Shown: one piece after another, positions 3,879-40,443 of the stretch | How the letters are laid out: each line of letters opens with the position of its first letter | How positions within the stretch are numbered: the first letter of the stretch is position 1 | Assembly: GCA_021904315.1 (NCBI GenBank) | Contig: CM038922.1 | Span: forward strand, 5,803,347 to 5,867,346 | DNA: 64,000 nucleotides | DNA from: Sphagnum magellanicum | Taxonomy: Eukaryota; Streptophyta; Sphagnopsida; Sphagnales; Sphagnaceae | Direction: 5' to 3' | The notes under the pieces: model-generated | The model's database searches: none | What the model was told of the DNA's origin: nothing | Seen by the model: only the letters and a program-made list of their open reading frames with translations | Program-made: the position numbers and the translations under genes

Positions 3879-6800
3879 TTACAAGTTGGAGACCAATGGG
3901 GGAGGAGCTAGAATGTGAATACGATGCCATGAATTATTCAGAACACCCCTTAAATTCCAAATCTCATCAACACTTTGGGGCTGCACATTTGATGCACTAT
4001 CAACCTGCACATGCCACCACATGGCATGATAAGAAACATGCAAGAAGAGCTATAACTTATGGATAGATTGATGGTAACAGGCTGTTCGCATGCCAGCAAT
4101 TTGAGCACACCCAACCTTTACAATTTGGTAGACCAGCATGATTGACTTTGGGTGGATCAAAACCATCTTAGAACAAGTTCTCAAGATAAACACCAAATCA
4201 ATTTGTCCAGTTAGAATTAAAAAGTTTCAACCATATACAAACAAACATCATGTCCCCCTGGCCTTCTTGTATTTCTCTTCTGTTGCAAATGCACAACTGG
4301 CTAATGGCACATCCCATGTACTCCATGTCTTTCCAGTCCTTTTGCAGAATGATTAGCAAAGAGAAATGCAGTCTAAACAAATGATAGATGAGTGGATAAC
4401 AGCAATCCAGACTGGAGACCTGGAGAGAGAGGTCAAATACCGCTTTCACAATGACATCCACAGGGGGGAATACTTTGATATACTTAAGCTCCCATAAAAC
4501 CCAAGCCCAATTAGGGCGTTGAGGATCATGGTCTTCTCCAGGAAAATGCTCCCTGGGAAGGCGAACTGCCTCCAGCCATGTCTTGCCACCATCTACTGAC
4601 AGATCCACACGCTCAATACCACGGCCACCACCTGCAAGTGCATAACCACGGAAATTCACCTGCAATACAACCAGCCAAGGTGCTTTGAAGACTGGAACTG
4701 ACCAGCGACCACAGTTCTCAAACACTGGAAGTTAAAAGCAAGAAGATCAGAAGTGAAGCACTGACCATTGTTCCATCCTCAACCACAATACCATCTCCTG
4801 GCTCACAAATTGCACTCTGCCAATGGCCAACTTAAAAGTTAATCAGCACTAATAGGAGAAGAACATGAACAGTATGCCTGTGCCCACAATAGAGAGCATT
4901 GTTCAGTTTCACAAAGTTCCATTTCTGTGAGTTTTTCAGAACTTGGGAAACCATGTTGAACAAAGGTTTCCAAACTAAAAAGGTAGAAACTCTAAATACT
5001 ACCAAACTACCAAACCTGACTCTTCTCTAGCAGGGATGCCTAGAAGAAGAAAAAAAAGATTGAAAACAGCCAGAAGAATTACCTGGACAGGAAAATCCAT
5101 CAGAGGACGTCTGGATTGCCAATCGATGTTGTGCCAGTCAATTGAGGGTGGAAACATCTTGTAGTCTTTTTGCATGAAGAAGCCCTATATCAGACAATAT
5201 ATGATAGCTCAGAACATATGAGATTCCTTGATTCCCCAAAACAAAGCTATAGCAGGGCCTGAGAAATATTGCACTACCTGGCACTCAAATTCAGATACTA
5301 TGATGGTTTCTAACCACTTAACAGATCGGGCACCAATAACACCGGGAACCACCACTCGCAAAGGAAACCCATGATCTCGATTCAAGTCCTGTTTGACACA
5401 AAGCAAAACATAGCCCTTTTAACCCCAGTTACAGTACCCAAGACGGTTGCAATTCACAGATGAGGTCTTGTAAGACCTCAGAGGATGGACTTGTAATAAA
5501 GATGTTTCATTAAAATAGCAGCATCTATGCAACTGCAGAAGCAGTACTGTATACCTTGCCATTCATCTCATAGGCCAGTAAGATGTCTGCCTCTGGAGTT
5601 GTGGCATGTAGCAATGGAACCGATGCTTTGTAAGGCCCCCCTTCTTCCTCCTTCATACAAGAACATACCACCAAATCATAAATAGTAACACTCTCTCACA
5701 TCCTCTCTCATTTCTCTTCCATTGTGAGTTGTCACATGACATTCTTGCAGTTGTCCTCCACTGTTCCTGTTCATGTATACCTGTTCACACTGGTCAACCT
5801 CAATATTAACTTTTCTCATCAATTAACTCTCAGTATTCCTCTCTGTATTTAATAGAATTCCCTTTCAGCCCCCTCCAAAATTGTGTATAGACTACATTAT
5901 TGTGAGAAACTTGACACGAATGAGATTACCTTGCAAACATCACAGCTGACAAACTCCACATGCCTGCCACCTAAGGTTGTAACTCCTGTGCAATGTGGTA
6001 CACCTGCCAGAGTAAGCACATCGGAAAGCCTAGCTCCTCCCCAAGCAGCTGTGAAACATAAAACCACAAAAATAAGTCAATACAGGTCTTTGCAAGTATC
6101 TTTTGTTAACACAAACAGAAGAAGAGAAGAAGCTGAAGCTTTAGGCAGCATACAATGCAAGACCTGAATCATGAAATAGCATAACCTGGTGCATAGGAAA
6201 CTGATGTATGTCAGAAACCTAAATACAATAAATAGACCTGGCAGAGTCAGAATTACAACCGTGTTATTCATGCTACAAACCTCAAGTTCAAAGGGATGCA
6301 CGACCTGTTAAATGGGGGAAAGACATGTTGGATATGGGAATGCAGAGAAATTACCTGTACCAAGAGCTGCAGCACCCCAACCAACTCCTTTGACTTTCCT
6401 TCTAGTACTCATTTCTGTCCTTCGATTTCCTGCACACTGAACTTGCCCCTGAATCAATATTGCTAAAACCTCTAGTACCACACATGCTACTATTAACAGA
6501 TAATGGAGCTTCAAAAGAGTCATGGACCATCCTAATGTCAGACAACTGGATAAGTCAAGTAACAGCTGCCTTGAGCCTCCTAAAGGGAATGCTAGCCTTA
6601 GCCCATCTCAGAATAATAGAATAACATGGGCTATAAAACTTGCTTCTGTGCTTCCCTGCCATTCAGACTTGACTTCAATTGCCAAATTTACTTCATGCAC
6701 CGGATTCAAAATGACTGAAAGCTTCCCTATTTGTGACCCTGATTCTCTGTGTTGAAAGATGAGGTCCACTTAATTTTATGATGAGGTAGGTGGTGCAACA

Positions 6801-9584: not shown

Positions 9585-12385
9585 ATTGAGCCGTCTTCAA
9601 CCTCAAATGCATTATTAAATAACATGTGCAAAGGAATCTCAAAACATTCAAAGCCTTTGTGTGATAGAATGTACAGAAATGTTAAAGCCTTTCAAAGCCT
9701 GTGTGAAGGAACGTTGAAAAACATGGGATTTATGAAATATATGCAATTGATGTAATCAGAATATTAAATTTTTGAGTAAAATAAATTTTGAAATCAAAAG
9801 GATTCAACTACATAGAATATCAGATATGTTTATAATTAGAAAAAGAAATTCTTATCAACTTTTATGGTTTTAAAAGTCTTGCTCACCTCAATTTGCAAAT
9901 ATTGGTGTATTGCCCACAAATTATATCCTTTCTTTTCCTTCTTCCCTTTTCTTACATCTTATATGTTTCCTTTTTGCTCTTTCTAAAGTTGATAACAAGT
10001 CATTCATCCTCTTATCCATGTGATTTGATTAATGACACTGATTTGAAAATAAGTTCTAACACTTACAACGTATTCATGCGATGTCAAAAACACACAGGAT
10101 TCATAATCTTTTAAAGATTGCTTGAATGTTTTGATTCATATAATAAGGTAGAGCTTCAACACATGCTTGTAGAATAATTAATGAAAAGAAAGAAAATTCA
10201 TTTCCAATTTCTGAATATTCCAAAAAGCTTGTTTTTTTTCATAATTGTTTTTCTTTGAAAAAAGTAAATTTACCAATTATAAAGTCTCACAAATAATATA
10301 ATTAATGTTAAAGATACCAAGGTATTACAATGATAAATAGGATGTAAATATAAAAATGATATCCATGTACAATAGAATTATGTAATAGACAAGATGAATT
10401 ATTTTTCCAGTAAATCATATTTGCAAAAGGGACAAGGATCATCAAATGAGTTCAAAAAGACATGCACACATGCCAATAATAATTTAAAGGGTTACCATAA
10501 GTTGCAAAGATTTTAAATTCATATGATAGAAAATCAATAATTTTTATATTGTAAATTTATTAGGATTTATCATCAAGAATTGGCATGTGTAATGAAAATA
10601 ATGTTGATAGATGCCCATACAATTAATGATGGTCCAAATTGAATATTTAGTTAATGAATTTCAAAAAATAAAAATAAAAAGTCACAAACTTAATCAATTG
10701 TGAATACATAATGCTTTGTAAACATTCATTGTAAATTCTTATTCAGTTTTTTATTTTCATTGGCTCATTTTAAGCGTAGTCAATTTTACTTTATTGACGT
10801 TGTGTTATCATATGAGTAATGGAATTTGTCATTTATTGTGGGATTTGGGTCTTTTTTTAGAATTATCCAAAGTGTATACTTTTGAAATTATTATGTTATT
10901 ATGTGCAGCTTGTCTAATTGTATTGAATATAATTCAATTTTATTTATCATAGGCGCGTTGAAGATTGATTTTACAAGACAACAAAATGTTAAATGTGGAT
11001 TTCAAAGCTAATATTATTCACAACTATACCTCTTTGACCATTATTCAATCAATTTTCTTTTGTATTATTGCATATTCAATTTTTAAATTTTTTTGTGTCA
11101 TCTTATTTAAATAATTTGACAAATGTACATTTTAAGTATTTAATTTATTTTCCCTCTCTTTTGAAGGATGAATTGGACGTCATTTGAAACATGTTTGTAA
11201 AAATATGAAAGTGTTGATATCACTTGACTTATGTTATATAATAATGATCTAATGCACAAAACTTAATCAAATGTTCAAAAACATATTAAAATAAGTTTTT
11301 ATTCAAAAGAAAAACTACATTAAAAAACATTGAAGAAAATAACACACTTTTTTTTTGGTCTATTAATTTATTCAATTATTTCTTTTCACATAGAAGGTGA
11401 ACATCACTTGTTGTGTAACATTTTAAATGAATGCAAACCATATGGAAGGAGATAAAAATATGTGGATGATGCCCAAACATAAAAAAACACATGAAAAAAA
11501 ATGCTCCATTCAAAACCACAATCTATTGAATTTAACACAACTCTAAACAACTCTAATATCTTTAATTTTATTGTCAACCTTCATTCTTATTTTGTGTTTG
11601 AAACATATTGTCATTCAATCATTATGTGTTTTCGCATTTGTTACTTCTTTCTTTTGTGCATATAATTTTCAAAATAATATTTACATAATTACAAAAAAAA
11701 ATCATTCAAATTTATAAATTTTATGAAACAAATTTTAAAAAAAACGAGATTGAATACCATGCATGCATAGTATCAAAACAATTCCATCATGACAAACTCC
11801 AATTTGAAATTATTCAATGTACAACAACATATAAAACTTAAACTTGTCCCAACTAAACCAATTCCAATGAATCATTGTCATTGGAATTTTCATATGTTCC
11901 CAATGCTGTTCCCCATGATATTCTCCAAGTTCCCAATGTGTTTCCCTAGTGTATTCCCAATAGCACCACATTTTATATGGATGGTCCTTTGCCAAAGTTC
12001 TTCCCTTCTCCCCTAAATAGGTGAGCTAAAAAGGGGTGCACTCCATCCATCCATCCTCAAATAGAAATTTGTTATTTTGGGAGCCTCTCAAGTTTCAGTG
12101 TTTTTTAGGTGATGGGCCAATCAAAATATCCTCCTAAAATTATGGATTTCATGCATAAAACCAAAAAACATCAACGCCAGCTATGCCCTAGAAATCTACC
12201 ATTTTATGAGATCTGAATTCTAGAAATTCCGTAGATTTGTCCTTCTTCTGGATTGCGCTTCAATCCTTCCTTCGTCGCGCAAGCTTCCCTGGTGCACTGC
12301 AGTGTGCTCTTGGCGCTTGGCTTTCAGCTTCTTCTCTCTCTCTCTCTCTCTCGCTTCACAGGATTCGTTTTAGCTCTAGTGGGAA
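9585..12385. other. AT-rich spacer upstream of NOL
   Basis: The sequence is very AT-rich with poly-A and poly-T runs and no supportable gene. The last few hundred bases should contain the NOL promoter and 5' UTR. A CT-repeat tract at about 12333-12352 sits 35-50 bp before the NOL start codon, where plant leaders often carry such tracts. Confidence 0.5.
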
Positions 12386-21108: not shown

Positions 21109-29681
<8,573 letters not shown>

Positions 29682-33127: not shown

Positions 33128-33136
33128 CATTTAGGG
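33128..33136. repeat. Left 9-bp target duplication
   Basis: CATTTAGGG directly precedes the left terminal inverted repeat and is repeated exactly at 39978-39986. Confidence 0.8.
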
Positions 33137-33475
33137 GGCTGGAGTGAATTAGCACCCACCAATGCACCAGTTGCGGATGAGCCCGTTGAGGCCGTTTTCT
33201 GGATGGACAAAAATCCCATCCTCCCTGCCCGATTTTATTTTTTTTTTTCCACCTCCTCTCTACCCCAAAATTTTCCCCCGTCCTACCTACCACCTACCTC
33301 CCCCCTCCTACCTACCACCTACCAACCCCACCCCCCCCCTCACTCCATCGCCAGAGCTCCAGAGACCTCGGGCGGCTGTGGAGTGGGAGCTGGAGCTGTG
33401 GCTGTGGAGCTGGAGCGGAGTTGCTGGAGTTGGAGCGGGACCCACGCGCACACGAAAAGGTAAGAAGTCTTCTTC

Positions 33476-33740
33476 TTTTTCTTTCTTGCTTGCTTGCTGC
33501 AACGCAGCAAGCTCTGGAGCCAGGCTCCGGAGCTTGCGTTGCGTTGCTTTGCTGCAACGCAGCAAGCTCCGAAGCTTGCGTTGCTTGCTGCAACGCAGCA
33601 ATTGCAGCAAACTCCGGAGCTGGCTCCGGAGCTTGCGTTGCTTGCTGCGGCTTGCTTGCTGCTGCAACGCAGCAAGCTCCGGAGCGTGAGAGCTTGCTGC
33701 TGCAACTAAACCCTGCAACGCAGCAAGCTCTGGAGCGTCT
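33476..33740. repeat. Palindrome-rich GC array in gene leader intron
   Basis: Repeats built from GCTTGCTGCAACGCAGCAAGC-like and AGCTCCGGAGCT-like palindromes occur about six times. Both strands have long open frames here, but these are translations of the repeat. The array follows a good splice donor (AAAAG|GTAAGA, 33459/33460) and precedes an acceptor-like TTTAG at about 33860, so it probably lies in a leader intron of the zinc-finger gene. Confidence 0.75.
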
Positions 33741-33875
33741 CTTGCAGTAGAAGAAAAAGAAGAACCCTGAACCTTTTGCCCCATCCTCTATATTTTTTAT
33801 TTTGCTTTGGTTTAGCTGATTAGAATTAACATTTAACAATAACTAGTGGTCTTTTGTTTAGGGTTGGAGGTTGGA

Positions 33876-35361
33876 ATGGGTAAGAGAAGAAGACTCAGGA
33901 AAAGCGGTGGTGGTGAGCTGGAGGTCAATATGCAAGATGTTGCATCAGATGAGGCGATTCTTCCAAGTGTTGCTGAGCTGGAGGTCAATATGCAAGATGT
34001 TGCATTAGATGAGGCGATTCTTCCAAGTGTTGCTGTGGCAGATGTGATGATTCTTTTGCCATATGTTGCTGGAGGAGATGAGGGAGTTGTTGAGTCACAT
34101 GTTGCTGCATCTGATGCAACAATTATTCAGCAAAATGTTGCATCAGATGAAGCAAATAGTGAACAAGATGTTGCATCAGATGAGGAAATGGGTGAGCAAA
34201 ATGGTGCTCTATCACAATTGAAATATAAAGATAGCATTAGTATAGATTGTTTTAGAATTTGTGGACATCAGATTAAATACAGATTAAGAAAATTGTACAA
34301 GTTTTTTTAGGTTTAATTATATCCGCACCTTCCATCATTTGTTGGAAGGTGCGGGATTTTTTTTGTCAAATTTTTTTTATGCAATACCTGAAAACAATGA
34401 TTTGTAATATCTACATTTTGTTTTTTGATCTTTCTTTTTTTGGCTTAGGTCCAGAAGTTGAATCTGATAAGGCAGCTCTGCCACTTGCACTTCTTTGCCC
34501 ACCGAATTTGGCTCGGAAGGACAAGGAATGGACGCATGTTGGGTCCAAATGGAGGTGCAAAGTTGGTAATTGCACTACTGCATATTGTGCAAAATGGCTG
34601 TTGACGAAACACTTGAAGGAGGTGCATGGGTTGGCGGCTGAAAAGTCCAAACCTGGGAGGCCTTCAACTGCTGCAAGAGGTCCTCGACATCAGGACCATG
34701 CCAAGATGAATGCTCGCATCTTGGGAAATGCGATGGCTGTGCAGAGGCGGAACAATCAAAAGGTGGCTAATCGCGCTCGTGCTAAAGCACAACGCGAATG
34801 GGAAAACCTGGTAGCTGTTGCAAAACAGTGTCCACCATTCCCAAAACCAGGTTTGGTGAAATTAGCTTCAAAGAAACTTTTGAAAGTGTTGGGGCTTACT
34901 GCCTGGGGTGTGGGCAGTGTGCCTCGAGATGCAGCATCGCGAATAGAGAAAGATGAACACTTACAAGGGATTATTCGATCCACCCGTTGCGCATATGCAC
35001 GACAACTCAAGACGGCATGGGATGCCAAATATTGGGATCGAGAGTCCAATAAAACAAGTCGGAGAAAACAGTTGGCAGTTGTTTTGGATTTTCATGAATC
35101 TAGAATGATTCATGGAAGGTAAGAAACAATCATAAGCAATGTTTATTGTTTTTTTATTGCATTTCATCCAAGGTGTGTTAGGGTTTAACTTGGTGGTTTT
35201 TGGGTGTTTATAGGGTTCAGGGCCAAACACAGGAAGAGTTTGTGGCAACTTCAGTTCAAGTGGAAATGCAACGTCGGCATTTATACACTGCTCGTCATGC
35301 AACAAAGGCTGCAAATGCAGCTACTGCGTACCGAGCTAAACACGGGATTGTAGATTGCTAG
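33876..35361 (+). CDS. Transposon-borne C2H2 zinc-finger protein, 3 exons
   Basis: Family not recognised. Exons 33876-34191, 34449-35118 and 35214-35361 join in frame to 377 aa with GT-AG introns (GTGAGC and GTAAGA donors). The start gives MGKRRRLRKSGGG, a basic possible nuclear signal. Residues about 14-53 are two nearly identical 20-residue repeats (ELEVNMQDVA...), followed by more acidic ASDE-containing repeats. Cys142, Cys147, His160 and His165 form C-x4-C-x12-H-x4-H. KPGRPSTAARGPR at 173-185 has the GRP core of an AT-hook. The remainder is basic and probably helical (RRNNQKVANRARAKAQREW, then FVATSVQVEMQRRHLYTARH) and ends GIVDC. It has no DDE triad. It is inside the TIR element, so a DNA-binding role for the element, or a captured host factor, is inference. 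A 5' non-coding exon ending at 33459 is likely. Confidence 0.7.
33915..34034 (+). repeat. 60-bp in-frame tandem duplication in exon 1
   Basis: Positions 33915-33974 and 33975-34034 differ at one base (C to T, a Ser to Leu change). The duplication adds exactly 20 codons, so frame is kept. Confidence 0.95.
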
Positions 35362-35703
35362 ACACTGATATGGGTTAGGGTTTAGGGTTATACAGTTAGT
35401 TAGGTTTTATAGCCCTTTTACTTTTTGGACTACCCAATTTTGAACTACCCAATATAATAGCATCTTCTATTCACACTTGTTTTATGGTATATGGTTAAGC
35501 ATATGTCTTCTTTGTCATAATTTTTTTAGTACTTGAGATGTAAGAATCAAACCAAAGATCAAAATGAACATTGTGCAATACTTACATCTAATATAATAAC
35601 ACTCACATCACTTGAAGAGTTTCAAAACAATATACACATTTTAAACATATAAAATACCTACATCATTTTCTATTATAAATCTCATAAGGAGATTTTCAAA
35701 TAT

Positions 35704-36080
35704 GCAATACCCACATATACGTCCTAAAATAGTCACAGGCATATTACATTCAGTGCAATACCCGCATCTAAGTCCCATAATAGTCGTTGCAATTTTTGGC
35801 ATCCCTTGCAATACCCGCATCTAAGTCCCATAATAGCCGCTGGTATTTTTGGCATCTCTTGCAATACCCGCATATGGGCCACCCATAGTTGTTGACATTC
35901 GTCATTCGTTGCAATACCCGCATATGGGTCCATGGTTTTCGTTGGGTTTTATAACATTTCTTGCAATACTCGCATATAGTTTCCATAATAGCCACTGGTT
36001 TTTTTTGTGTCTCTTGCAATACCCGCATATAGGTCCCATAATAGTTGCTGATTTTTTTCATTCTTTGCAAAACTTACATT
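35704..36080. repeat. About 52-bp minisatellite, array A
   Basis: GCAATACCCGCAT-like cores begin at 35704, 35755, 35808, 35861, 35911, 35963, 36016 and 36067, a period of 50-53 bp. Between the cores are variants of AAGTCCCATAATAGTCGTTG. The core is the reverse complement of the core of arrays B and C, so array A points the other way. Confidence 0.9.
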
Positions 36081-36197
36081 TTGTCATAAAATTAATTTAG
36101 AATAATATTTAATTTAGGTATATAAAAAGACATATTTTGGGTATCCATAGCATTTATTTGTTATTTTGAAATGACATTACATGCGAGTTTTGCATTC

Positions 36198-36850
36198 AGG
36201 GTTTAGGGTTTAGGGTTTAGGGTTAGGTTTTCACATAAGGTTTGCTTCTTACCTTTGTGTGATAACTCCAACCTAATTTTCCTAATCTCTTTGAAGAAAA
36301 TATATAATAAGATTGTATTAGGTCCCATATGTTTAAACCCAAAAAATTTCCCCCCAATTGAATATAAAATATTTTTGATAGTACATGAATTATCAACAAA
36401 TTTTAACATATAATTAAATAATTAATAGACCATTATTTCAGATAATTTAAATGATTAATTATCAAGAATTAGATAATCATTTATTTATTTGGAATAATTA
36501 ACTATTCATTTGGCTTAACTTCATTTATTTGGATAATAAAAAGTTGGATCTAAAAATCAGATTAACTTTATTTGATTGATTAACTTTAATATATTTTTAT
36601 TTTAATAAGTGATTAAAATCACTATTTAAGATAACTATTTCATGTTATAGATTGCATGTTCAGCTTTTTCATGAAAAATTCATACACCAAAATAAGTTTG
36701 ATCACAATTGCCATTATACTATTTGTTCCACAAACAATACAATTTTTTTTCAAATTCATGAAACAAAATAAGAATCATGGGTTTAGGGTTTAGGGTTTTA
36801 GGGTTTTTTAGGTTTAGGGTTTAGGGTTTAGGGTTTACCCTAAACCCTAA
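36198..36850. repeat. Interstitial telomere-like tracts and 5' copy of a duplicated block
   Basis: TTTAGGG repeats occur at about 36198-36226 (four units) and 36779-36835, the second tract then turning into CCCTAAA units at about 36837-36852 as a small palindrome. Between them lies an AT-rich block of about 540 bp (about 36225-36780) that recurs at about 37578-38040. The TTTAGGG unit is the common plant telomere type. Confidence 0.85.
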
Positions 36851-37577
36851 ACTCCTAATCAACAACCCCAGCCTCACACCTTTGTTAACATATTATTTTG
36901 AAATTAATTAATTATTTTAAAATGACCCAAAATGTAGATATTACATTTAGGGTAGGATTTTCATTTAAAAAAGCCTAAACCCCACAACCGTATTTTTATA
37001 GTGGCCCAAAATGCAAGTATTGCATGTAGGGTAGGATCTTCACTTAAAGAGGGCTTAAACCCCCCATGCGTACTTTCGAGGTGACCCAAAATGTAGGTAT
37101 TGCATTTAGGGTTCAGTTTATATCATTATTTATATATTAAGTGTTATGAATAACAATATATTTGGACCAATATTTAAACCAATATTATACATCATGAAAA
37201 ATAAAGTTTACATAAGGATTTATGTTATATATGTATAAAATATAAAATATTTTTGACCCACTATATGAATATATTAACCAAGAAATTTTTTACTATATAT
37301 CAAAGAAATAAAAATAAAAATTTCAATTAAACATAGGATTAATATATGGGAGAGATCATTTTTATTATTATGTGAAATAGAAAAGAAGAAAGTAAATAAT
37401 TACGTGCTTTGAATTTTTTTTAAACATAATTTAAAATCTTGTTAAATTAAAGACTTTATAGTTATGTTTTTAGTATGAATATACAACTTTAAAAGGGGAA
37501 AAAAAATATGAACATCTTTGAAAAATATTTAAGCTTGAACTTTTTATTTTTTGATCTTGACAAACTTCGTATTACAT

Positions 37578-38100
37578 TTAGGGTTGGGTTTTCATATAAG
37601 GTTTGTTTTTTACCTTTGTGCGATAAATATTTATGATAATTAATGAATTATCACAAAATTTGTCATATAATTAAATAATTAATAGACCATTATTTCAGAT
37701 AATTTAGATGATTAATTATCAAGAATCATATAATCATTTATTTATTTAAAATAATTAACTAATCATTTGGCTTAAATTTATTTACTTGAAAATAAAAAGT
37801 TGGATTTAATCAGATTAATTAATTTGATATTTGATTGATTAACTTTAGTATATTTTTGTTTTAATAAGTTATTGAAATCACTATTTAAGATAATTATTCC
37901 ATGTTATAAATTGCAAGTTCAACTTTTTCATGAAAAATTTTTACACCAAAATAAGCTTGATCACAATTGTCATTGTATTATTTGTTCCACAAACAATAGA
38001 ACCTCTTTTAAAATTCATGAAAAAAAATAAGAATCATGGATTCCTAATCAACAACCCCAACCTCCATACACACTTTTGTTAACATATGATTTTGAAATTA
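37578..38100. repeat. 3' copy of the duplicated AT-rich block
   Basis: This is a direct repeat of about 36225-36880, recognisable from TTTCAGATAATTTARATGAT through ATTTGTTCCACAAACAATA to AATAAGAATCATGG and CAACCCC. It diverges by scattered substitutions and indels. A shorter third relative is at about 39050-39160. Confidence 0.8.
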
Positions 38101-38560
38101 ACTAATTATTTTAGAGTGACCCAAAATGCAGGTATTGCATTTAGGGTAGGATCTTCATATAAAAAACCCTAAACCCACATGCGTACTTTCGGAGTGACCC
38201 TAAATGCAGGTATTGCATTTAGGGTGGGATCTTCATATAAAGAACCCTAAACCCCACATGTGTACTTTCGAAGTGACCCTAAATGCAGGTATTGCATTTA
38301 GGGTGGGATCTTCATATAAAGAAACCCTAAACCCCACATGCGTACTTTCGGAGTGACCCCAAATGCAAGTATTGCATTTAGGGTGGGATCTTCATATAAA
38401 GAACCCTAAACCCCACATGGGTACTTTCGGAGTGACCCTAAATGCAGGTATTGCATTTAGGGTAAGATCTTCATATAAAGAAAGCTTAAACCCTACATGC
38501 GTCCTTTCGGAGTGACCCAAAGTGCAGGTATTGCATTTAGGGTTGGGTTATTTCAAAGTG
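38100..38560. repeat. About 79-bp minisatellite, array B
   Basis: ATGCAGGTATTGCATTTAGG cores begin near 38128, 38206, 38285, 38365, 38444 and 38524, a period of 78-80. Each unit also has GGGATCTTCATATAAAGAA and a CCCCACATGCGTACTTTCGG block. Older copies of the same unit lie at about 36930-37110 and three more at about 39410-39605. Confidence 0.9.
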
Positions 38561-39409
38561 ACTTTGCATATGCATATTGTGTTTAGGGCTAGGTCTTCAC
38601 TTAAGGGTATCCAAACCATTTAGATGGGTTTTTTTGAAACGTGGGTATTACATTTAGGTTTGTTTTTTCATTTCAACTTGAAATACCCAAACTTATACTT
38701 ACCTTTACCAACTAGAATTTTGGGGTTTCGTTGCAATACCTACATCCGTACTTACTTTTACCAACTAGAATTTTGGGGCATAATTTCAATACTTGCACTT
38801 GTACTTACTTTTACCAAACCCTAACAAAAAAAAATCTTAGTGATATATGCCCTAAACCTAAAAAATTATACAAGCTATACAAATCATATAATGCAAAATA
38901 AACTAATTTAAAAGAACATAGGAAAAAATTTAAAAACTAAAATTCAAAGGTTTTAAACTATAAATATTTATTAAGTGAAAGAAAATACGTTAATCTTTAA
39001 AAATAATCAAATAAATTTCATATAAAACCAAAAGAAAAGATATGTGTTTTATCTTTGTGTGATCCTTCCAACCTAATTTTTCCACTCTTTTTGAAGAAGA
39101 TATAAAATGCAATTGTATTACTTCACATATGTGTAAACCCTAAAATTTTCCCCCCAAATTTAGCCTACTCTAGATTAATTACTATACATTTGTGAAAAAC
39201 TTATTAATTAATTTGTGTCTCAACCCTAAACCTAAAAATTTCCCCCCAAATTTAGCTTACTTTAAATTAATTACTATACATTTATGAAAAACTTATCAAT
39301 TAATTTATGTGTCTCAACCCTAAACCTAATGGTTAAGTTAGTAGGGTATGTAATTAATAGAGTAGCTAGGTTAGTAGGGTAGGTGGTTAGTATAGTAGCT
39401 TGGTTAGCG

Positions 39410-39605
39410 GTGTGACCCAAAATGTAAGTATTGCATTTAGGGTATGATCTTCGTATAAAGATGTTTAAACCTCACATGCGTATTTTCGAAATGGCCCAAA
39501 ATGCAGGTATTGCATTTAGGGTAGGATCTTTGTATAAAGAAAGCTTGAACCCCACATGCGTACTTTCGAAATGGCCCAAAATGCAGGTATTGCATTTAGG
39601 GTAAG
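39410..39605. repeat. About 78-bp units, array C
   Basis: Three further units of the array B repeat. They share ATGCAGGTATTGCATTTAGG, the GATCTTYGTATAAAGA segment and CCTCACATGCGTATTTTCGA-like spacers. They end where the 33-bp array begins. Confidence 0.85.
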
Positions 39606-39636
39606 GTTTTTAGGGTAGGGTATGTAATTAATAGGG

Positions 39637-39780
39637 TAGCTAGGTTAGTAGGGTAGGTGGTGAGTACAGTAGCTAGGTTAGTAGGGTAGGTGATGAGTAC
39701 AGTAGCTAGGTTAATAGGGTAGGTGGTAAGTACAGTAGCTAGGTTAGTAGGGTAGGTGGTGAGTGCAGTAGCTAGGTAGA
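39637..39780. repeat. 33-bp tandem array near right TIR
   Basis: TAGCTAGGTTAGTAGGGTAG recurs with starts at 39637, 39670, 39703, 39736 and 39769, an exact period of 33, about 200 bp inside the right terminus. A partial, older copy is at about 39360-39400. Confidence 0.92.
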
Positions 39781-39977
39781 AAAGTGAACAGGGTAGCTAT
39801 GTGTGAGGTCAGGTCCAGGGAAAAACGAGCAGGAACCAAAAAAAAAAAGTACAATGGTCAGCAGCAAAAAGAAATGGACTGTCATGAACCCCATCCGGCG
39901 CCAAATGAAAAAACGCAACCCATCCAGTGGACAGAACGGCCAACTGGTGCATTGGTGGCTGTTAATTCACTCTGGCC

Positions 39978-39986
39978 CATTTAGGG
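39978..39986. repeat. Right 9-bp target duplication
   Basis: CATTTAGGG directly follows the right TIR and exactly repeats 33128-33136. Confidence 0.8.
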
Positions 39987-40443
39987 ACAGTTAGGACTGG
40001 TTTGGGTGAACCAGCACCCACACTCAAACCCAGTTTTTTGGGGTTGGCTTCGAGAGGCCTTGGGTAAAGCAGCACCTACAGGGGGTACCACCCTCAAAAC
40101 TACAAATTATTTTGCGATTCCTCTAAACACTGCAAATATCCTGTCTCAAGACAAAATCAGGGCTTCCTAGTACAAATTTCACATCTTCCCGGAGGATTAT
40201 AGCCACTCCCTAAGGACCTACCTCAAGAAGGCGAAGATTTGAGTGTAAGATTGAGTTCTTCCTGGCCTATATCATGACCTAAGTAATAGCTACCTAGCAG
40301 CCATTTTTTTTGGGATGAAAAATAGACAAAAGACAGATATCAGCAATGACTGTACGACATGTCCAATTAGAAATTAGAGCAGGCCCTAAAAGTGACACCA
40401 TCACCTAATCCTCTTGGCACCATGTGGCACCATCATCAGAGCC
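39987..40443. other. Spacer between two transposons
   Basis: About 460 bp of sequence with no gene. It separates the zinc-finger element from the 20-kb Mutator-like element and probably represents pre-insertion DNA or another decayed element. Confidence 0.4.

What the first reader, a model, noticed from the sequence alone, without database searches (positions are those of the whole stretch)
33137..39977. TIR element that carries an intact zinc-finger gene but no visible transposase
Inverted ends (about 33/37 identical) flanked by a perfect 9-bp duplication define a transposon. Its only gene encodes a 377-aa C2H2 plus AT-hook-like protein with clean reading frame across three exons, while neighbouring mobile elements are riddled with stops. 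An intact gene suggests recent mobility or selection. I do not recognise the family.
Basis: partly seen in the sequence, partly recalled or inferred. Interest (0 to 1): 0.78.

Follow-up and report, generated by a model that had tools for sequence, protein, structure and literature searches.

The report
Moss transposon carrying its own zinc-finger gene
A peat-moss genome contains a family of jumping DNA (Mutator-like) whose short copies, including this one, have lost the transposase but mostly kept a zinc-finger gene that evolution has preserved and whose possible DNA targets are repeated many times inside the element.

Summary
In detail: element 33137-39977, perfect 9-bp duplication, intact 377-aa three-exon gene. 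The genome (Sphagnum; by assembly size probably S. divinum) has at least 40 loci with this left end. All 20 copies fetched at about 10 kb have both ends and a 9-10 bp duplication. At least part of the zinc-finger gene was found at 36 of 40 loci.

The missing transposase exists: two full-length copies (12.6 and 13.1 kb) carry the zinc-finger gene plus, on the other strand, a MULE transposase (PF10551, E 4e-9). The window copy is an internal-deletion derivative joined inside tandem repeats; 14 of 19 short copies share that join.

The gene is no passenger: approximate dN/dS between diverged subfamilies is 0.21-0.30, and nonsense changes are about a third of neutral expectation. Recent changes are mostly C>T/G>A, most frequent at CHG sites, as expected of methylated copies.

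A 14-bp motif (RTGYRGRTATTRCA) occurs exactly 17 times in the element, 0 times elsewhere in the window, and persists in diverged subfamilies and in intron 1. Likely reading: an element-encoded DNA-binding protein acting on its own arrays, like VANC of Arabidopsis VANDALs but with another protein and motif. Binding and function are inferred.

The parts
33128..33136 (.). target-site duplication, left copy (CATTTAGGG)
33137..33173 (+). left terminal inverted repeat
   Evidence: 38-nt arms, 89% complementary; the outer 33 nt of the left end match with 0-1 mismatches in the 20 copies fetched, which were picked by left-end similarity
33876..34191 (+). zinc-finger gene exon 1; contains a 60-bp (20-aa) repeat present 1-4 times in different copies
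34192..34448 (+). intron 1, with one exact copy of the 14-bp motif (34403-34416, minus) and a stem-loop (about 34321-34357)
34449..35118 (+). exon 2: C-x4-C-x12-H-x4-H finger, GRP tripeptide, C-terminal part
35214..35361 (+). exon 3 with stop codon
35574..36028 (-). motif array A: 7 motif copies at about 50-bp spacing, minus orientation (35703-36028; 6 exact, 1 with one mismatch), plus one with one mismatch at 35574
36932..37104 (+). motif array B (about 80-bp unit), 3 motif copies, one with a mismatch
38126..38535 (+). motif array C (79-bp unit), 6 motif copies, one with a mismatch; the join left by loss of the transposase falls inside it (about 38262-38387)
39422..39594 (+). motif array D (about 80-bp unit), 3 motif copies, one with a mismatch
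39941..39977 (-). right terminal inverted repeat
39978..39986 (.). target-site duplication, right copy (CATTTAGGG)

Best explanation
The element is a non-autonomous, internally deleted copy of a two-gene Mutator-like (MULE) family of Sphagnum. Shown: full-length relatives (12.6-13.1 kb) carry the zinc-finger gene on one strand and a MULE transposase on the other, separated and flanked by tandem arrays of a 14-bp motif; the short copies lack the transposase through a join within those arrays. Inferred: short copies are moved in trans; the zinc-finger protein is the element's own DNA-binding accessory protein and recognises the RTGYRGRTATTRCA motif, of which the copies examined hold 10-25 exact instances. 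Its most likely job is to open or un-silence copies of its own family (VANC-like), with helping the transposase as the nearest alternative.
For: Ends and TSDs in 20 of 20 copies. At least part of the ZnF gene at 36 of 40 left-end loci: window, 19 of 20, 2 of 3, 14 of 16. MULE transposase PF10551, E 4.4e-9, above the curated cut-off, in L018, with a 98% identical tail in L027. 14 of 19 short copies share the el18 ~5530/~10849 join. Long-term purifying selection on exon 2 (approximate counts): dN/dS 0.30 (L045), 0.21 (L049), 0.30 between the two. Nonsense C>T at 0.35 of expectation (bootstrap 0.11-0.73). Finger residues C37, H55, H60 invariant in 42 of 42 sequences, C42 in 36 of 42. Motif: 17 exact in the element, 0 in the other 57 kb, 0 in 200 shuffles; kept in diverged copies, 10 and 21 exact; kept singly in intron 1 (19 of 22 exact, 3 of 22 with one mismatch).
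Against: No binding, expression or methylation data. Tandem repetition inflates the motif count, and repeats can be kept alike by unequal exchange without selection. Two loci (L025, L033) carry a captured rhomboid fragment in place of the ZnF gene, so the gene seems not to be needed in cis. Missense changes among young copies are near neutral (0.85, 0.65-1.13), and ratios between close copies scatter from 0.31 to 1.94. The AlphaFold model of exon 2 is poor (mean pLDDT 53.9), so the finger rests on spacing and conservation. L027's transposase has 3 stops in one piece, so it is broken; L018's 5' exon is unresolved, so no copy is shown to be active.
Confidence: 0.6

Rival explanations
1. The zinc-finger protein is a transposition helper: it binds the arrays to bring the ends together or load the transposase (as TnpA of En/Spm is recalled to do), and has nothing to do with silencing.
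For: Motif arrays flank the transposase gene and reach to about 0.4 kb from the right end; two-ORF MULEs with C2H2 proteins exist (Spectre, Mutyl MutB; PMC6446971 passages).
Against: With up to one mismatch, no motif lies in the first 1.2 kb of the window copy or the first 1.4 kb of L018, unlike classical subterminal sites at both ends; one site is in an intron.
Confidence: 0.3
2. Captured host gene riding along (Pack-MULE passenger) with no role for the element.
For: The family does capture genes: a rhomboid fragment with introns stands in place of the ZnF gene in L025 and L033.
Against: Found at least in part at 36 of 40 loci and in both full-length copies; approximate dN/dS 0.21-0.30 between subfamilies; the gene goes with the motif in diverged copies; many homologous clusters (47; 419 at E <= 10), the three with an organism name all Sphagnum.
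Confidence: 0.07
3. The arrays are ordinary minisatellites and the motif similarity is an accident of repeat turnover; the ZnF binds elsewhere.
For: Tandem and telomere-like repeats are frequent in the element (23 rows); choosing units by motif match makes core conservation partly circular.
Against: Two arrays with unlike flanks (17/40 identical) share the core (13/14, partly circular), and a non-tandem intron copy is kept in diverged copies.
Confidence: 0.2

Closest known systems
VANDAL MULEs of Arabidopsis with VANC (Hosaka et al. 2017, PMC5735166, passages seen; Sasaki et al. 2023, PMC10398659, abstract and outline seen)
   Same: MULE superfamily with 9-bp TSD; element-encoded non-transposase protein; short motif in tandem repeats of non-coding regions, including introns
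   Different: VANC carries DUF1985/DUF287, not found here; the VANC21 motif YAGTATTAY occurs 0 times in this element; VANC motifs diverge quickly, this one persists in the two diverged copies read; anti-silencing is not tested here
MULEs with a C2H2 protein: Spectre of arthropods, Mutyl (MutB) of fungi (PMC6446971, passages seen)
   Same: MULE transposase plus C2H2 zinc finger, 8-10 bp TSD
   Different: plant host, a protein with no Pfam match, motif arrays, and many transposase-less copies that keep the ZnF gene; no sequence comparison with those proteins was made
Pack-MULEs (PMC13317346, passages seen)
   Same: gene-fragment capture seen in L025/L033 (rhomboid)
   Different: the ZnF gene is a standing part of the family, not a captured fragment

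Membership tests
Mutator-like elements (MULE) | target-site duplication of 8-11 bp | tested here: met
   20 of 20 copies, 9-10 bp, 14 perfect and 6 with one mismatch
Mutator-like elements (MULE) | MULE-type DDE transposase in full-length members | tested here: met
   PF10551 E 4.4e-9, 37.1 bits against cut-off 27.6, in L018
Mutator-like elements (MULE) | terminal inverted repeats | tested here: met
   38 bp, 89%
VANDAL / VANC anti-silencing system | VANC protein with DUF1985 | tested here: not met
   no such Pfam match in the window exons 1 and 2 or among the families listed for the 46 aligned members
VANDAL / VANC anti-silencing system | short motif in tandem repeats of non-coding regions | tested here: met
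VANDAL / VANC anti-silencing system | protein binds the motif and causes methylation loss | not testable with these tools
   needs EMSA or ChIP and methylome
C2H2 zinc-finger protein | Cys2His2 spacing and beta-beta-alpha fold | tested here: inconclusive
   spacing C-x4-C-x12-H-x4-H, three ligands invariant and one in 36 of 42; strand-strand-helix in a low-confidence model; no Pfam hit passing its cut-off, best C2H2 model E 0.16 in 5 of 46 members
Pack-MULE | internal gene is a captured host fragment | tested here: not met
   for the ZnF gene: whole gene, selected, family-wide; met for L025, with the same insert in L033

The most novel reading that the evidence does not exclude
A moss MULE family has independently evolved a zinc-finger-based, sequence-specific anti-silencing system: the protein binds a 14-bp motif arrayed through the element, counters CHG methylation on its own family, and keeps paying off in copies that have shed the transposase, so protein and motif are held together over long subfamily divergence.
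Probability: 0.33. Interest if true: 0.82.

Novelty: new variant of a known kind. Interest (0 to 1): 0.56.

Why it matters
Transposon-encoded anti-silencing with its own DNA targets is known to me only from VANDALs of Arabidopsis and relatives (recalled; the listings, 15 of 101 papers, and 124, 4 of 4, showed no other transposon system of the kind). A second system, in a lineage that split from flowering plants hundreds of millions of years ago (recalled) and built on a different protein, would show that this counter-defence evolves repeatedly. It also gives a clean test pair, one small protein and one 14-bp motif. Even without that function, it accounts for a MULE family of 40 or more copies in which most copies read lack a transposase.

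Tried and rejected
Rejected: (1) host gene at a conserved place: the gene moves with the ends. (2) Non-MULE superfamily: settled by PF10551 in a full-length copy. (3) Self-targeted insertion: the window TSD CATTTAGGG equals the tail of the array unit, but none of the 20 other TSDs read does, so it is taken as coincidence. (4) VANC21 motif identity: YAGTATTAY 0 copies.

Led nowhere: viral and bacterial contig scans for the protein, TIR and motif (no related locus); PDB sequence search (one chance-level match); AlphaFold of exon 2 (pLDDT 53.9), so no fold search was run. One genome search was answered (50); unanswered as busy: 3, 9, 14, 22, 29, 34, 39, 43, 51-53, 57, 59, 61, 63, 65, 66, 68, 71, 73, 76, 79, 81, 84, 86, 88, 90, 92, 95, 98, 102, 105, 107, 109, 111, 114, 116, 118, 120, 122, 125, 127, 129, 131, 136. 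Hence no genome-wide TIR, ZnF or PF10551 census and no empty-site search. One search failed (stop codons in a wrongly framed reference) and one search failed (search term too short).
Full report
What was checked. Inverted arms 33136-33173 and 39941-39978 are 38 nt and 89% complementary, and the 9-mer CATTTAGGG stands at both sides (33128-33136, 39978-39986). The gene re-derived by enumerating splice pairs has exons 33876-34191, 34449-35118 and 35214-35361 and encodes 377 aa.

Host. In a protein search 47 clusters were found; the three that carry an organism name are Sphagnum (S. balticum, 94% identical, and S. jensenii twice). With an alignment query 419 clusters came at E <= 10, of which the best 120 were listed, all at E 1e-91 or better. 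The window lies in a genome of 438,994,042 bases in 31 contigs; the published S. divinum assembly is 439 Mb (PMC9946827, passage). The species is therefore an inference. That paper's main text has no occurrence of 'mutator' or 'mule', and a passage names CACTA as its most abundant classified repeat.

The family. The first 264 bp of the element match 40 loci (44 rows, four of them second pieces; a lower bound, 40 of 460 candidates scored). I fetched 20 at about 10 kb, 3 at 4.5 kb and 16 at 1.7 kb; with the window that is 40. Both ends and a duplication were found in 18 of 20 directly (13 perfect, 5 with one mismatch). The other two proved longer: L018 is 12,566 bp (9 of 10 bp duplication) and L027 is 13,054 bp (9 of 9). 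The diverged copy L045 also has both ends, with an 8 of 9 bp duplication. The ZnF gene is in the window, in 19 of 20, in 2 of 3 and, at least in part, in 14 of 16: 36 of 40. Of those 14, L036 shows only the start of exon 1 (at the end of the stretch), L041 only exon 3, and L037 exons 1 and 3 at low identity without an exon 2 match; L047 and L048 show none in the 1.7 kb looked at.

The transposase. L018 and L027 share a 3.7-kb stretch, 98% identical, with no match over 250 bp in the other 19 loci compared. On the minus strand it encodes a MULE transposase: PF10551, E 4.4e-9, 37.1 bits against a cut-off of 27.6. A C-terminal SWIM-like CxC...CxH is visible but scores below Pfam's cut-off (E 0.76). 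The DDE candidates ISMDATFG, FLVDDAPQE and NQDTQASIESYH are my reading of the sequence, from recall of the family. The first 5' exon was not resolved. Three pieces (273, 91, 313 codons) are open in L018; L027 has 3 stops in the last. A 274-aa piece has 217 homologous clusters, several of the 120 listed with PF10551 and PF21056.

How the short copies arose. Mapped on L018, 14 of 19 short copies, the window among them, run to about position 5530 and resume at 10849-10856, with overlaps of 46-202 bp (126 in the window) in the 79-bp repeat. L026 and L028 run to 5802 before resuming at 10860, L016 resumes at 11996, and L010 and L021 differ again. So the transposase stretch is missing by a join within the arrays that flank it, perhaps more than once; repeat-mediated deletion is the inference.

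Gene capture. In L025 the ZnF gene is replaced by a rhomboid-protease fragment with introns (PF01694, E 1.3e-11); L033 holds the same insert, judged by its peptides. L025 has both ends and a perfect duplication; L033's right end was not read. That this form occurs at two loci argues against a strict need for the ZnF gene in cis.

Selection. Of 270 substitutions from the consensus in 17 main-group copies (window included), 240 are C>T or G>A. Rates per site and copy are CG 0.028, CHG 0.065, CHH 0.014, the mark expected of CHG-methylated DNA; methylation itself was not measured. Among these young copies pN/pS is 0.74 and context-corrected missense is 0.85 of expectation (0.65-1.13, not different from neutral), but nonsense is 0.35 (0.11-0.73; 0.3% of bootstraps at 1 or more). 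Main group against the L026-L028 group gives 0.60-0.66. Between more distant copies exon 2 is clearly constrained: L045 dN/dS 0.30 (46 syn, 56 non, 222 codons), L049 0.21 (59, 59, 196 codons), L045 against L049 0.30; L045 and L049 themselves hold 1 and 3 stops, so the constraint is ancestral. These are simple counts with a Jukes-Cantor correction. The nine other comparisons in the same call scatter from 0.31 to 1.94 on few changes, and L031 exons 2-3 give 1.49 on six changes. Six of 20 copies examined keep the whole frame and all splice sites, two more keep the frame with one splice site changed, and twelve are broken.

The motif. RTGYRGRTATTRCA occurs 17 times exactly in the window element, 0 times in the other 57 kb and 0 times in 200 dinucleotide shuffles; with one mismatch allowed it is 23 inside and 2 outside. 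It sits in minus orientation in a roughly 50-bp array after the gene and in plus orientation in 79-80-bp arrays further on; the two contexts share the core (13/14, partly circular because units were picked by it) but not the flanks (17/40). The 19 short copies hold 11-23 exact sites, the full-length ones 24 and 25. The diverged L045 and L049 have 10 and 21 exact sites in the 6.9 and 6.7 kb read. A lone, non-tandem copy in intron 1 is exact in 19 of 22 copies and one mismatch off in 3, and is present in L045 and L049. Of 125 homolog sequences 70 begin with what I take for intron-1 read-through; 45 of these read CN[TI][CY]I, which the motif encodes, 5 read it in another frame, and 20 fit neither pattern. 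That is compatible with the motif, not proof at the DNA level.

Mechanism. ZnF gene, arrays and ends form one standing unit; the transposase is the part most often missing. A DNA-binding-type protein kept with an array of one short motif in its own non-coding DNA is the anatomy of VANC/VANDAL (PMC5735166 passages; PMC10398659 abstract). It is not a VANC: no DUF1985, and a different motif. Whether it removes silencing, helps transposition or represses is not shown.

Literature. MULEs with C2H2 proteins are tabulated (Spectre, Mutyl; PMC6446971 passages). No paper of the library holds all of Sphagnum, MULE, transposase and zinc finger (117 papers hold three, and the 10 listed have no 'Sphagnum'). 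The listings showed no title describing this family; most subscription journals are not in the library.

Noticed in passing
window 23601-23632 (minus): A lone end GGCCAGAGTGAACCAGCACTCACCAGTGCACC, 6 of 32 mismatches to the element's TIR, with no partner found in the window: possible relic of a related family.
   Followed up: partly
window 39999-40035: Another TIR-like stretch (GGTTTGGGTGAACCAGCACCCACACTC...) starts 12 bp right of the element's TSD; no partner seen in the scan.
   Followed up: no
window 34321-34357: A strong stem-loop (CCGCACCTTCCA...TGGAAGGTGCGG) in intron 1, largely kept in diverged copies L045 and L049.
   Followed up: no
window 33907-34035: 60-bp in-frame repeat in exon 1, present 1 to 4 times in different copies.
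   Followed up: partly
L025, L033: MULE copies with a captured rhomboid-protease fragment with introns.
   Followed up: partly
L025 8094-8473 and L016 6242-6591 (oriented): Short pairs of TIR-like ends (6-9 mismatches) 350-380 bp apart close to the right end of the big element: possible miniature relatives; no clean duplication.
   Followed up: no
window 36198-36224, 36779-36837: Telomere-like TTTAGGG runs inside the element.
   Followed up: no
L011 (C20:2885396): One copy lies on a 4.7-Mb contig whose size fits the small chromosome 20 described for Sphagnum (PMC9946827 passage); inference from size only.
   Followed up: no
window 4198-4725 (minus): Frame with the Mo-co oxidoreductase dimerisation domain PF03404 (E 8.8e-15), probably a host sulfite-oxidase or nitrate-reductase type gene.
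   Followed up: no
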